This document shows positions 30,842-34,599 of a stretch of 37,017 nucleotides of DNA, one piece after another. Each line of letters starts with the position of its first letter. Position 1 is the first letter of the stretch. The position numbers were made by a program, and so were the translations under genes. A model generated the notes under the pieces. It did not search any database. It saw only the letters and a program-made list of their open reading frames with translations, and was not told the DNA's origin. This DNA comes from Beijerinckiaceae bacterium (GTDB lineage Bacteria > Pseudomonadota > Alphaproteobacteria > Rhizobiales > Beijerinckiaceae): the NCBI GenBank assembly GCA_947474545.1, contig CANJJI010000028.1, positions 1 through 37,017 of the forward strand, in the 5' to 3' direction.

Positions 30842-31032
30842 AGGTGGGGAGGTGGGCTAAAGTTTATTTTGGCGCCACTGCCGCATATACAGATGCCGCA
30901 TGCCCATTTTCTCGCGCCCCAGCAGGGCGCGGGACTGTAACCACGGGTAGAGCGCAGGCGCTGCGCAGCGAGCCGGCGCGCAACCCATGGGTGGGGGTCA
31001 CTCGAGAGATTCGCCATTATAGTGACATCTTA
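30842..31032. other. Intergenic stretch with dense palindromes after ycjX
   Basis: A perfect 7-bp hairpin CGCGCCC/GGGCGCG (30913-30931), a 12-base perfect palindrome CGCTGCGCAGCG (30959-30970) and the 10-base palindrome ACCCATGGGT (30983-30992) follow one another. No convincing gene is present. No T-run follows the first hairpin, so a ycjX terminator is doubtful. The palindromes may be repeat-element debris next to the RAYT remnant. Confidence 0.5.
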
Positions 31033-31337
31033 CTAGGTCCCACAGTTCTTCCCCGTCTTCGGCCCTCTCTTGCGGGGGCGGACTTCGCGGTCTATCAGCG
31101 CTTCTATGTTATCGAGAATATCCGGCCCGCCTGTCAGGGCAGCCTATGGTTTTGGCTGATCGCAGGGCACACATCAGTGCTGGGGCGGGCGCGCGTTCGA
31201 TGAGGTCCGCGAACCGGCCGCCGCAACGCTCCAGCAGCGGCGCTGTTGTGACATAGCAATCCTCCCCGCCCGCAAGATGCGCCCGGACGCTCGCCCAGCG
31301 CCGCCATATCGACCGGCCTTGGCTGAACCCCGAACAG
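31033..31337 (-). pseudogene. Remnant of REP-associated tyrosine transposase (RAYT/TnpREP), 3' part, frameshifted
   Basis: On the minus strand one frame reads RRWASVRAHLAGGEDCYV, then TTAPLLERCGGRFADLIERA and ALRSAKTIGCP. Near 31133-31142 the frame must shift by one base to continue as GGPDILDNIEALIDREVRP and RKRGPKTGKN, ending at a stop (31033-31035). The two pieces together match the C-terminal part of RAYT proteins as I know them (SSxRAHL, APLLER, RTGRPLG, RKPGPKPK). The catalytic N-terminal half with the HUH histidines is absent. RAYTs mobilise palindromic REP elements. The remnant ends next to an unrelated gene at 31345, suggesting disruption. Confidence 0.7.
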
Positions 31338-31344
31338 GCGGGTA

Positions 31345-32235
31345 CTAATCAGATCGCTTTAACTTCACCTCTTCTAAAATTGGTACAGCGTTCTTAAAGT
31401 CCTTTACATCATCGCGCTGTGCAACGATCGGCAACACTTCGACAAGTTTCGGCATCCCGAAAATGCCAAACTCCGCCAAGCGTTCCATTTCGCGCTCATA
31501 ATTCTTGGGTTCTGACCACGGTGTTTTGCGATCATCCCAAAACCAAACGTCATCCTTGTCATCGTGTTCGATCCGCAGCCAAGGGTCGAGCCGCTCTGGA
31601 GTACGCCCGACGCGCAGACGCCACATTGGAAAATAATCCCTAGAGAAAACAACTATTGACCCATCCGGCTCCGTCCATGAGCCATATGGGATATAAAGGC
31701 GCATCGGTATGAACAGCGGTAAAGCGACTCTTGGTGTAACAAATTCAAAATCCGACACGATCGCGTCAGCAGATTTGTGAGTAATGACCCTCGTCGATCT
31801 ACCAAAGCTCCGCAAAATCACGTGCTCGCCGTTCCTGCCAGCGGATTTGAGTTTGCCTATTGCCCCTCGTTCCCTCCGGCCAGCTGGAGGAAGTTCAGCG
31901 GCCTCAAATAACCTGCGGCGGATCTCGAGTGACTGGCGCGGATCGGCTGGCCGGTTTCCCGTGAGCCGACTTGTTGATAGCGCGTATTGAACATCACCTG
32001 CATTCGCGTCAAGCGACTGCACCAACTCCTTCACGAGTGCGATCTCACTTTCGATGATGTTGACGTTTGGAGGTTCATTTGTGGACGAAAATGAAGTTTC
32101 GAGATCGTGCCAGTCTCGATAACCACAAGCCTTGGCAATTGCCTGCTGACAGGCGGCAAGCGACTGTCCTGTTGCAACAGAGACAGCTTTGGCAGCCTTC
32201 TTCGGACGTGTTGAATTCGGGAAATTAATCCGCAT
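31345..32235 (-). CDS. Unrecognised accessory protein
   Basis: The 296-residue protein has a good start: AGGAG lies ten bases upstream of the ATG at 32235. The N-terminal 45 residues (RPKKAAKAVSVATGQSLAAC, then AKACGYRDWHDLE) look like a small helical DNA- or protein-binding module. The rest is Arg/Asp/Trp-rich without motifs I know. Codon use is visibly less GC-biased than in neighbouring genes, and it lies between ycjX and ycjF against the direction of both. Recent acquisition is likely (inference). It abuts the RAYT remnant, whose missing half it may have replaced. Confidence 0.65.
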   Translation of the reverse strand: MRINFPNSTRPKKAAKAVSVATGQSLAACQQAIAKACGYRDWHDLETSFSSTNEPPNVNIIESEIALVKELVQSLDANAGDVQYALSTSRLTGNRPADPRQSLEIRRRLFEAAELPPAGRRERGAIGKLKSAGRNGEHVILRSFGRSTRVITHKSADAIVSDFEFVTPRVALPLFIPMRLYIPYGSWTEPDGSIVVFSRDYFPMWRLRVGRTPERLDPWLRIEHDDKDDVWFWDDRKTPWSEPKNYEREMERLAEFGIFGMPKLVEVLPIVAQRDDVKDFKNAVPILEEVKLKRSD

Positions 32236-32395
32236 GACGTTCTCCTAAGGTGCACGTATCGAAGGCGTGTCCACTAAGCCCGATGGCACCAATAAGAGTG
32301 GTCACCACGGTTGATCTAACACCTTGCCCGTAAGGCTTCGCCATTGTGGACGGCGCGGGAGGTAACTCCGCGTAACTGTATTTTAGTCGATTCGG

Positions 32396-32527
32396 ATGAA
32401 AGCCGAAAGCACCTCCGATCACGAAACTGCGCTCAATCCAGATCCGCATCGCGATGAGGAACGCAAGAAACTGCCGAGTTATGTGCGCGGCGCGCTCGCC
32501 GAGCTTCGGCAATATGGGTTTCGGTGA
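32396..32527 (+). CDS. Possible small ORF, 43 residues
   Basis: An ATG at 32396 opens a short charged frame (HRDEERKKLPSYVRGALAEL, ending RQYGFR) that looks protein-like but has no clear ribosome site. It lies in the 496-base gap between the accessory gene and the SOS-box gene. The opposite strand also has a short frame of similar length, so coding is unproven. The rest of that gap (32236-32395 and 32528-32647) shows no structure I can name. Confidence 0.22.
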   Translation: MKAESTSDHETALNPDPHRDEERKKLPSYVRGALAELRQYGFR

Positions 32528-32647
32528 TGGCGTGGACAACGCCCGCACTGGCATCGATGCGCCATGATGTCTTGCTGTCGAAGAATGCAATCAGAATGAA
32601 TGCCGTATGCAACGTCATGTCATGTGAGACTCACGGTTCCGCGCGAT

Positions 32648-32675
32648 CCCTTCGCCCCGCTTGCGGGGAGAAGGG
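32648..32675. repeat. Palindromic dispersed repeat (CCCTTC...GAAGGG)
   Basis: CCCTTCGCCCCGC pairs with GCGGGGAGAAGGG over 12 of 13 positions around a TT loop. This matches a palindrome frequent between genes in Hyphomicrobiales (from memory). It lies 20 bases upstream of the -35 element of the SOS-box promoter. Confidence 0.65.
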
Positions 32676-32694
32676 ATAATTGTGAAAATAATCC

Positions 32695-32722
32695 TTGACT
32701 AATGTTCCTATTTTGTTCTATT
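32695..32722 (+). promoter_or_regulatory. Promoter of the SOS-box gene
   Basis: TTGACT (32695-32700) and TCTATT (32717-32722) are spaced by 16 bases. The start point would fall near 32729, only a few bases before the ATG at 32732, so the transcript would be leaderless or nearly so. The LexA box occupies the spacer and part of the -10. Confidence 0.55.
32704..32718 (+). promoter_or_regulatory. LexA (SOS) box, GTTC-N7-GTTC
   Basis: GTTC at 32704-32707 and GTTC at 32715-32718 are separated by exactly seven bases (CTATTTT). This is the alphaproteobacterial LexA operator, in the opposite orientation to the box at recA. Its position inside the promoter predicts tight repression. Confidence 0.85.
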
Positions 32723-32731
32723 CACCCCGCC

Positions 32732-33427
32732 ATGGATATTCCCGCAGCCATCGATCTCAATAAAACCCTCCTCGCCCGCATCATTGCGGGGCTTTTCACC
32801 TTGCTGGGTGGGGGGAACGGGCCTGCGCGGATTTCTGCAGAACTGCATCGCAGGATTGTCCGCGTGCTGCGGCCCGCTGAATCCTCTGTACGGCGGTTGA
32901 TTGTCTTGCTGGTCACGATCACGGGAATGAAAGCGCCGCCGCCACGCGCGCAGTCGCGTTCCTCCATTCCATCAGGCCTTGCCCGCACGGGAGATGCAAA
33001 AAAGCGCCAGTCTTTCCCGCTTTTCGATCCCTGGCAGCGGTTCTGGCGTCAGCCTCCTGCGAAAAAAGCCCCCTCTGCGCTGCCGCGCATTCTTTCTCTC
33101 GACTACGACGGACTTCGCAGACTCAAGGAGAGTCTCAACGCCCCATCCACAGCGGACAAAAAGACTGAGGACATCAGCCCCATCAATCTCCTGCGGCGGC
33201 TTGAGGCTGTCATTGGCGCGCTTGAGAATCTGCCGCATCAGGCCAAACGTCTCGTCCGCGCGCTGGCCAGACGCCAGAAATTTCCCCATCTGAAACTCAG
33301 AATGCCCGTCCGGCCCGGCCGTGCGCCGGGCTTCCGCGTCAAACCGCGTCTGGAGATCGATCACGTCCTGCACGAATGCGACTGGCTCGCCCGCAATGCG
33401 CTGCCGCCTGCGACTGATACATCCTGA
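32732..33427 (+). CDS. Uncharacterised protein under a LexA box
   Basis: I choose the ATG at 32732, downstream of the promoter; the frame starting at 32702 would begin inside the LexA box. No ribosome site precedes it, consistent with a leaderless message. The 231-residue basic protein has two short hydrophobic stretches near the N-terminus (about 13-27, LLARIIAGLFTLLGG, and 54-66, RRLIVLLVTITGM). A Pro/Arg-rich linker follows, then a helical region (about 125-185, LRRLEAVIGALENLPHQ and AKRLVRALARRQKF) and a Cys/His-containing end. I recognise no family. It is upstream of ycjF in the same direction by 125 bases. A DNA-damage-induced membrane-associated protein is an inference from the operator and hydrophobic segments. 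Confidence 0.7.
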   Translation: MDIPAAIDLNKTLLARIIAGLFTLLGGGNGPARISAELHRRIVRVLRPAESSVRRLIVLLVTITGMKAPPPRAQSRSSIPSGLARTGDAKKRQSFPLFDPWQRFWRQPPAKKAPSALPRILSLDYDGLRRLKESLNAPSTADKKTEDISPINLLRRLEAVIGALENLPHQAKRLVRALARRQKFPHLKLRMPVRPGRAPGFRVKPRLEIDHVLHECDWLARNALPPATDTS

Positions 33428-33552
33428 CAATCCGGCATTCCTCGCTCTCGTCCCCTCGCGTGCAACGCACGGCGGGGTTATGGGCGCTGGGAATGCGGCG
33501 CTCCTGCCCCGTCCCGCTTGCACCCGCCCGCCTCCACCTCCAAATTAGCGCC

Positions 33553-34599
33553 ATGAGCACATCGACCACCGCCCCCCAGCGCCGCCCGCGCGCTTTTCGC
33601 CTCGACAACGGCGCAACAATCGCGACCCCGGCGGTGGAGCCGGAACCGGATTTCTATGAGCGCGAAGCCGCAGAAGCCGCTGCGCCAACAGGAGAAGCGG
33701 CGGTTGAAGATGCGCAAAGACAGGGCATGGTCCGCCGCACCCTCATCTCCTGGGGCGGGCTGTTCTGGTCGGCTTTCGTCAGCCTGCTGACTCTGGCCCT
33801 CGGCCTCTGGTTCACAAATCTGGTGGAAGATCTGTTCCGCCGCTCTCCGGCGCTTGGCTATGTGGGCCTGGCCCTGCTGGCGCTGGCCGCCCTCGCGTTG
33901 ATCGTGCTCGCCGCGCGCGAAATTTTCGCCATCAGCCGCCAACGCAGGATTGCGACCCTGCATATCGCGCTGGCGCAGGCGCGTGCCGGGGATGACCGGG
34001 ATACCGCCCGCTCTCGTATCAACGAACTCAACGCGCTTTACGAAACGCGGCCCGGGACGGCGCGCGCGCGCGCCCATCTGGCCGAGCTGACAAAGGAAAT
34101 TGTCGACGGGCGCGACCTCATCGACATCGCCGAGCGCACATTGATGGCGCCGCTTGATGCGCAGGTGCAGCTCGAAATTGCCAATGCCGCCAAACGCGTT
34201 TCCGTCGTCACAGCCATCAGCCCGCGCGCGATTGTCGATCTTGCCTTTGTCGCCGCGCAAGTCCTGCGACTCATCCGCCGCATCTCCGTGATTTACGGCG
34301 GCCGGCCCGGCCTGTTCGGATTTTTCAAATTGCTGCGGTCTGTATTCGCGCATCTGGCAGTCACCGGCGGCATGGCCGCAGGCGATTCCATCATTCAGCA
34401 GGTGTTGGGGCACGGCCTCGCTGCCCGGCTGTCAGCACGGCTCGGCGAGGGCGTCTTGAATGGATTGCTCACCACGCGCGTCGGCCTGTCGGCCATGTCC
34501 GTCTGCCGCCCCATGCCCTTTGCAGCGATCGACCCGCCTGGAGTCAGCGATGTCGCGCCGTTTCTGTTTTCATCTGGGAAAAAGAACGAAGTGAAATAA
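33553..34599 (+). CDS. ycjF: YcjF-like inner membrane protein (TIGR01620/DUF697 family)
   Basis: The ATG at 33553 gives 348 residues beginning with a Pro/Arg-rich stretch (STTAPQRRPRAFRLDNGATI) typical of the family. Two membrane segments lie at about 68-90 and 98-118. The cytoplasmic C-terminal domain contains a helical region (RISVIYGGRPGLFGFFKLLR) and the conserved GEGVLNGLLTTRVGLSAM and CRPMPF blocks. YcjF is the usual partner of the YcjX P-loop protein, here separated from it by 2.7 kb. The 3' end overlaps the convergent msrQ-like gene by 56 bases. Confidence 0.9.
   Translation: MSTSTTAPQRRPRAFRLDNGATIATPAVEPEPDFYEREAAEAAAPTGEAAVEDAQRQGMVRRTLISWGGLFWSAFVSLLTLALGLWFTNLVEDLFRRSPALGYVGLALLALAALALIVLAAREIFAISRQRRIATLHIALAQARAGDDRDTARSRINELNALYETRPGTARARAHLAELTKEIVDGRDLIDIAERTLMAPLDAQVQLEIANAAKRVSVVTAISPRAIVDLAFVAAQVLRLIRRISVIYGGRPGLFGFFKLLRSVFAHLAVTGGMAAGDSIIQQVLGHGLAARLSARLGEGVLNGLLTTRVGLSAMSVCRPMPFAAIDPPGVSDVAPFLFSSGKKNEVK

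What the first reader, a model, noticed from the sequence alone, without database searches (positions are those of the whole stretch)
32695..33427. Uncharacterised gene behind a perfect LexA box, probably leaderless
GTTC-N7-GTTC sits inside the promoter spacer of a gene I cannot place in any family. The same operator type, in reverse orientation, controls recA in this window, so the genome uses this LexA system. The predicted start point is a few bases from the ATG. The protein has two short hydrophobic segments and a basic helical body. Known alphaproteobacterial SOS products include small membrane division inhibitors and mutagenesis proteins, and this could be a new class.
Basis: partly seen in the sequence, partly recalled or inferred. 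Interest (0 to 1): 0.75.

Follow-up and report, generated by a model that had tools for sequence, protein, structure and literature searches.

The report
SOS-box gene copied across genome
The gene is one of at least two dozen scattered copies of an unknown gene, nearly all carrying the same DNA-damage switch, which have inserted between ordinary genes of one bacterium and belong to a new family of small, highly positively charged proteins.

Summary
GTTC-N7-GTTC lies at 32704-32718 in the promoter of a 231-aa gene (ATG 32732) without a significant match in Pfam, NCBIfam, PHROGs, PADLOC or PDB. The same draft genome holds at least 23 promoter-bearing copies on 23 contigs (median DNA identity 81%), and 14 of the 23 other genomes found in GTDB hold several. 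Outside a boxless group (0 of 16), LexA-type boxes are exact before 68 of 79 copies, against 0.2 expected from shuffles. Seven of seven readable own sites (13 examined) are empty in the closest relative; the window copy lies in a 2.7-kb insert that separates ycjX from the DUF697 gene. Copies keep their reading frame (median dN/dS 0.20), recombine with each other, and share no regular neighbour gene. The protein model is all-helical, pI about 11.5, of no known fold, and probably not membrane-spanning. Best reading: a damage-inducible, dispersing one-gene unit, probably selfish, whose protein binds nucleic acid and aids its own copying or recombination. Amplification, insertion and box conservation are shown; induction and protein activity are inferred. 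The division-inhibitor idea is not supported.

The parts
32695..32700 (+). -35-like hexamer TTGACT
   Evidence: sequence; same place in 5 of 23 own copies with a box
32704..32718 (+). LexA-type operator GTTCCTATTTTGTTC
32717..32722 (+). -10-like TCTATT (16-nt spacer holding most of the operator); start point expected near 32729-32730
   Evidence: sequence; inference
32732..33427 (+). gene of the dispersed family, 231 aa, stop 33425-33427
   Evidence: start fixed by the copies
33452..33477 (+). hairpin CCCCTCGCGTGCAACGCACGGCGGGG behind the gene, like tails behind many copies; possible terminator (inference)
30843..33564 (+). 2.7-kb segment absent at the same site in relative G019, where ycjX and the DUF697 gene touch
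32515..32694 (+). upstream stretch shared with a subset of copies (C100, C153, C7)
30903..31015 (+). arm of another repeat also found upstream of copies C99 and C235
8913..8927 (-). same operator type before recA; the only exact GTTCNNNTTTTGTTC of the genome not before a family copy

Best explanation
The window gene is one copy of a dispersing one-gene unit: promoter, LexA operator, one reading frame, and often a hairpin tail. LexA would hold the copies silent. DNA damage would inactivate LexA and release the two dozen copies at once. They would make a burst of a small, arginine-rich, all-helical protein that most likely binds nucleic acid and helps the unit to copy itself into new intergenic places or to recombine with its sister copies while RecA is active. 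Shown here by sequence: multicopy state, insertion at sites empty in the nearest relative, conserved operator, purifying selection, recombination between copies. Inferred: repression and induction by LexA, nucleic-acid binding. Speculative: that the protein itself drives the copying.
For: Copies: 36-38 protein-level matches in the own genome, fragments included; 34 loci with unit DNA; 23 with a readable box within one mismatch. Two or more loci in 14 of 23 other genomes (80 of 90 loci kept; my sorting by accession). Insertion: of 13 own sites examined, 7 could be read on both flanks in G019 and all 7 lack the unit (own segments 1.0-3.3 kb against 0-84 bp). No regular neighbour: apart from frames overlapping the gene itself, no class of neighbour ORF occurs at more than 12 of 114 loci. 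Operator: 68 of 79 exact (0.2 expected), 77 of 79 within one mismatch (3.4 expected). Half-site letters are 91-100% kept, against 30-83% in the 35 letters before (own) and 30-59% (others) (aligned on the box). Coding: dN/dS median 0.20, range 0.10-0.36, 136 pairs of 17 copies. Recombination: PHI 0.518 against 0.568 permuted, p 0.0005; in L114/L132 the 3' part of the gene and the flank are 88% alike while the 5' part is 75% alike. Recent exchange: some partial copies at contig ends are 97-100% alike over 119-226 bp. Protein: pI 11.5, net charge +23, helical model with pLDDT 84 and pTM 0.77.
Against: No inverted ends of the unit and no target-site duplication were seen (flanks 12-24% divergent, which blurs the junctions). 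Three of the seven insertions, the window's among them, are larger than the unit (2.2-3.3 kb) and hold other DNA too. The protein resembles no transposase or recombinase in sequence or fold. The boxless group is also multicopy in some genomes (Oricola indica, 4 loci), so the LexA box is not needed for multiplication. Some copies sit at the same site in two genomes (L109/L167, L126/L159, L108/L111), so they can persist. Near-full-length own copies differ by about 19%, so a recent burst of whole units is not shown. No expression data; the lexA gene itself was not searched.
Confidence: 0.42

Rival explanations
1. Host SOS effector. The protein serves the cell after DNA damage (for example coating or condensing nucleic acid, or a checkpoint) and extra copies are kept because dosage or variety pays. 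The units moved by ordinary duplication and recombination.
For: Purifying selection; operator kept in genomes whose proteins are only 31-55% identical to the window's; some copies persist at the same site in two genomes; boxless relatives persist in named strains such as Ahrensia kielensis and Oryzicola mucosus.
Against: Only 4 of 51 genomes of the genus have it; 7 of 7 readable own sites are empty in G019; match counts run from 3 to 38 among the four carriers of the genus (drafts); no own locus shares both flanks with a locus of the three other carriers of the genus.
Confidence: 0.28
2. Passenger unit. The gene is cargo multiplied by foreign machinery or by recombination through intergenic repeats; the LexA box is the cargo's own regulation.
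For: No recognisable mobility gene in the unit; several units are joined to other repeats; a structured RNA element in the same genome uses, in part of its copies, the same promoter type and tail.
Against: No regular companion gene beside the copies; in four of six locus pairs compared between genomes the homology of the units begins at -67 to -93 and ends shortly behind the stop, as if the unit were defined by itself.
Confidence: 0.22
3. Small membrane division inhibitor or toxin.
For: SOS-type promoter; two N-terminal helices.
Against: 231 aa against 29 aa for SidA (PMC4211646, passage); hydrophobic stretches under the threshold in the window copy and in 36 of 68 members; no regular partner gene.
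Confidence: 0.06

Closest known systems
LexA regulon of Alphaproteobacteria (Caulobacter: GTTCN7GTTC; 47 LexA-bound genes in 31 units, PMC12700426, passages)
   Same: Operator sequence and its place at the promoter; recA and uvrA carry it here too.
   Different: Here many operators of one genome belong to copies of one gene; described regulons list single genes (recalled).
LexA-controlled mobile elements (prophages, ICE SXT, integron integrases; recalled; PMC2958807 seen only as a search listing)
   Same: Mobile DNA placed under host damage control.
   Different: No recombinase, no array, no phage or plasmid record; a single unknown gene.
Insertion sequences (single-gene transposons)
   Same: About 1 kb at the smallest site, one gene, many dispersed copies, empty sites.
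   Different: No inverted ends or target duplication seen, no transposase match.
SidA and DidA of Caulobacter (PMC4211646, passages)
   Same: Damage-induced alphaproteobacterial products.
   Different: Small membrane proteins; this one is larger, basic and probably soluble.

Membership tests
Alphaproteobacterial LexA regulon | GTTC-N7-GTTC at the promoter | tested here: met
   window copy exact; 68 of 79 exact outside the boxless group, 0.2 expected; 0 of 16 in the boxless group
Alphaproteobacterial LexA regulon | same operator before known SOS genes of the genome | tested here: met
   recA, uvrA, Mg-chelatase (comM-type) and RadA-type genes; 4 of the 10 loci looked at had no such gene behind the box
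Alphaproteobacterial LexA regulon | induction after DNA damage, dependent on LexA and RecA | not testable with these tools
   needs cells
Insertion sequence / transposon | several copies and sites empty in a close relative | tested here: met
Insertion sequence / transposon | known transposase or recombinase domain | tested here: not met
Insertion sequence / transposon | terminal inverted repeats and target-site duplication | tested here: inconclusive
   none seen at six junctions aligned with 12-24% divergent flanks
Integron gene cassette | cassettes in an array next to an integrase | tested here: not met
   promoter-bearing own copies lie on 23 different contigs; no regular neighbour
SidA/DidA-type division inhibitor | very small protein with a membrane helix | tested here: not met
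   231 aa; weak hydrophobicity
Toxin-antitoxin pair | partner gene | tested here: not met
   no class of neighbour ORF of 100 aa or more at over 12 of 114 loci; smaller partners were not looked for
Phage or plasmid gene | relatives in phage or plasmid records | tested here: not met
   no match in phages, plasmids, viral contigs

The most novel reading that the evidence does not exclude
The protein is the founding member of a new class of DNA-mobilising proteins. It is made only when LexA is cleaved and copies its own promoter-to-stop unit into intergenic DNA, so that DNA damage directly triggers genome-wide spread of a one-gene element without any known transposase.
Probability: 0.22. Interest if true: 0.92.

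Novelty: new variant of a known kind. Interest (0 to 1): 0.7.

Why it matters
Of the 15 exact GTTCNNNTTTTGTTC sites of this genome 14 stand before copies of one unknown gene and one before recA (the T-rich pattern was chosen after seeing the copies). A damage response in which one scattered gene takes so many places would be unusual. If the units move when LexA is cleaved, this is a new way in which DNA damage reshapes genomes. If they serve the host, it is a new SOS function of high dosage. Both are testable. Named strains carry the boxless group (Oricola, Ahrensia, Oryzicola); the boxed carriers named are all metagenome bins, but the unnamed four-contig genome G236 has one boxed copy.

Tried and rejected
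Rejected: the start at 32702 (it overlaps the operator, and the box-ATG distance varies among copies). A DnaA-box reading of TTATCCAC before boxless copies (6 of the 14 boxless loci shown), dropped because some related copies have TTGTCC-like letters at a similar place, which fits a -35 element (by eye). The structured RNA element as an obligate partner: found in 2 of 46 genomes searched, both carriers of the gene, absent from the other 19 carriers and from all 25 non-carriers searched, with strict filters. Operon or two-gene system: no regular neighbour. Phage, plasmid or defence system: no match except one PADLOC line at E 0.018 for a relative, taken as chance. Fold search: three PDB and seven viral matches, all with E above 3. 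Paper searches: five listed no paper that by title or abstract describes such a family; passages of PMC12700426 and PMC4211646 were read, the rest seen as listings and starts of abstracts.

Limits: the own genome is a 286-contig draft; partial copies at contig ends may be halves of one copy, so 'at least 23' counts only 5' ends with a readable box (24 ends, one of them, L055, without its true 5' end). The boxless group was named after looking at the promoters; the rest is not one clade, since the Neomegalonema copies group with the boxless ones in the tree. Loci L178-L188 mostly repeat contigs already in L098-L177 (same lengths) and were left out, and L179 (G236, exact box) with them; 5' ends with under 60 nt upstream were also left out. 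Searches scored only 9 and 7 candidates per genome, so members may have been missed.

Full report
1. The observation. The operator GTTCCTATTTTGTTC is at 32704-32718. It lies between TTGACT (32695-32700) and a weak -10, TCTATT (32717-32722), and the ATG is at 32732. The operator in reverse precedes recA in the window. By itself the window count is not significant (3 against 0.82 expected, reached by 6 of 100 shuffles), and the bare pattern is hardly enriched in the genome (131 against 121 for the control).

2. Not one gene. A search of 61 genomes with the protein gave 36 matches in the own genome, 11 in G003, 5 in G019, 3 in G011, and none in the other 57. A profile over 51 genomes of the genus again gave 4 carriers, with 38, 11, 5 and 3 matches, fragments included. 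Wider samples gave 4 of 297 genomes of the order (own; G278 with 9; G236 with 1; G100 weak) and 3 of 385 of the class (own and two weak); few candidates were scored per genome. A scan of GTDB contigs found 90 loci and kept 80, which I sort by accession into 23 genomes, 14 of them with two or more loci. Named carriers are Hyphomicrobiales bins, Aestuariivirga, Oricola, Ahrensia, Zhengella, Oryzicola, Corticibacterium and Neomegalonema bins, and a short hit in a bin labelled Burkholderiales.

3. The unit. In the own genome the repeat runs from the promoter to 60-85 bp behind the stop in many copies, where a hairpin stands. In four of six locus pairs compared between genomes (L109/L167, L108/L111, L126/L159, L112/L160) the homology runs from -67 to -93 before the ATG to shortly behind the stop; in L114/L132 and L142/L154 it runs into the flank or the locus is cut. 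34 own loci hold unit DNA. Pairs compared over more than 500 bp are 72-93% identical, median 81%. Some partial copies at contig ends are 97-100% identical over 119-226 bp, as expected where recent repeats break an assembly (inference).

4. The operator is conserved. Of 24 own 5' ends, 20 have an exact box, 3 have one mismatch, and one (L055) lacks its true 5' end; shuffles give 0.08 exact. Of 55 ends in other genomes outside the boxless group, 48 are exact, 6 have one mismatch (5 of them all the Neomegalonema ends of that set) and 1 has two; shuffles give 0.11 exact. Of 16 ends of the boxless group none is within one mismatch. All this is; the boxless group was defined after seeing the promoters. 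Aligned on the box, half-site letters are 91-100% kept; the 35 letters before are 30-83% kept in own copies and 30-59% in the others. Exact GTTCNNNTTTTGTTC, a pattern chosen after seeing the copies, occurs 15 times in the own genome: 14 sites precede family copies and one precedes recA. Of 10 further box loci that I looked at, boxes stand before uvrA, an Mg-chelatase (comM-type) gene, a RadA-type gene, a radical-SAM gene and an integrase, one before the RNA element of paragraph 11, and four before nothing of note. So the operator type is that of the genome's damage response. The Caulobacter motif is the same (PMC12700426, passage).

5. Two promoter layouts. Of 23 own copies with a box, 15 have the -35 about 20-27 nt before the box, so that the box overlaps the -10 (TTGACA-N17-TATGTT in the typical case), with 17-31 nt from box to ATG. 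Five (window, C153, C100, C79, C7) have the -35 directly before the box and 12-13 nt from box to ATG. Three fit neither.

6. It inserted. In G019, G003 and G004 the ycjX and DUF697 genes are neighbours; in G019 they touch, and the window has 2722 bp between them, 30843-33564. I took flank pieces of 12 further copies to G019, G003 and G004. Six gave both flanks on one G019 contig, and all six lack the unit: own segments of 1343, 1279, 1233, 1019, 2248 and 3306 bp against 28, 64, 45, 17, 84 and 15 bp (C99, C100, C118, C24, C66, C106). The other six could not be read on both sides in G019. With the window this is 7 of 7 readable of 13 examined. In G003, C99 and C100 sites also show both flanks, with other DNA between them and no family match there. 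No target duplication was visible. The window, C66 and C106 insertions hold more than the unit.

7. It is under selection and recombines. 17 own copies: dS median 0.52, dN/dS median 0.20 (136 pairs). PHI test p 0.0005. Of 34 locus pairs in different genomes that share a neighbour ORF, three share both flanks (L109/L167, L126/L159, L108/L111). Their genes are 71-74% alike in DNA. In the two pairs measured the proteins are 65% and 70% alike and are not each other's best matches. The flanks are about 90% alike on both sides for L108/L111, 90% upstream but 68-76% downstream for L109/L167, and 76-77% for L126/L159. In L114/L132 the switch lies inside the gene. So copies at one site appear to be replaced or converted, most clearly in L108/L111 and L114/L132.

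8. The protein. No family match (one PADLOC line at E 0.018 for a relative and three single weak Pfam lines are taken as chance). The model is confident and all-helical (helices 3-24, 36-64, 125-136, 151-165, 167-182, 208-223), with no fold relative. pI 11.5 and net charge +23 suggest nucleic-acid binding (inference). Invariant in 68 members: L21, L46, P48, E50, R54, R55, L56, D99, R156, L164, R173, R194, P199, L213.

9. Neighbours. A second large ORF cluster (25 loci) turned out to be frames overlapping the family gene in 24 of 25. Otherwise the commonest neighbour class occurs at 12 of 114 loci and the next at 9.

10. Tree. The 17 own copies form one clade (100/100); copies of other related genomes interleave with each other. 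This fits amplification within the own lineage plus exchange elsewhere.

11. A second element. A structured RNA of about 265 nt, unknown to Rfam, is dispersed in the own genome and G003; part of its own-genome copies have the same promoter with a LexA-type box and the same tail.

12. Judgement. A dispersing one-gene unit with a damage-type operator is well supported as anatomy and history. That the protein drives its own spread is my preferred but unproven reading; host effector and passenger remain open.

Noticed in passing
L302:1525-1793, L002:1223-1491(-), L325, L317, L319 (own C26, C2, C12, C146, C63); G003 C22, C53, C56, C39, C75 and others: A dispersed structured RNA element of 261-270 nt, without a Rfam match: fold z -4.8 for one copy, 13 of 56 consensus pairs with changes on both sides. 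Own C26 and C2 copies carry the same promoter type with an exact LexA-type box and C63 one with a mismatch; C12 and C146 none. Model hits in 2 of 46 genomes, 5 and 9 copies. In G003 C22 it sits at the site of own copy C100.
   Followed up: partly
window 31345-32235 (-): 296-aa frame without Pfam or NCBIfam match inside the same 2.7-kb segment that is missing in G019; its DNA is not repeated elsewhere in the genome.
   Followed up: partly
L041 -416..-125 and L053 -393..-122 relative to the ATG; window 30903-30986: A roughly 260-bp repeat with inverted ends of about 42 nt upstream of some copies; one arm is in the window.
   Followed up: partly
L328:1826-2041: A 72-aa frame between a LexA-type box and a radA-type gene in the own genome; no Pfam match.
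   Followed up: no
L327:1737-2978: Radical-SAM gene behind a LexA-type box.
   Followed up: no
L333:1194-2408 (-): Phage-type integrase gene behind a LexA-type box in the own genome.
   Followed up: no
L148:4253 and 4844: Two family frames close together in Oricola nitratireducens, the first matching only its start, both boxless.
   Followed up: no
L141, L148, L151, L158, L174, L177: Boxless copies share TTATCCAC 37-88 nt before the start (6 of 14 boxless loci shown); taken as a -35-like element.
   Followed up: partly
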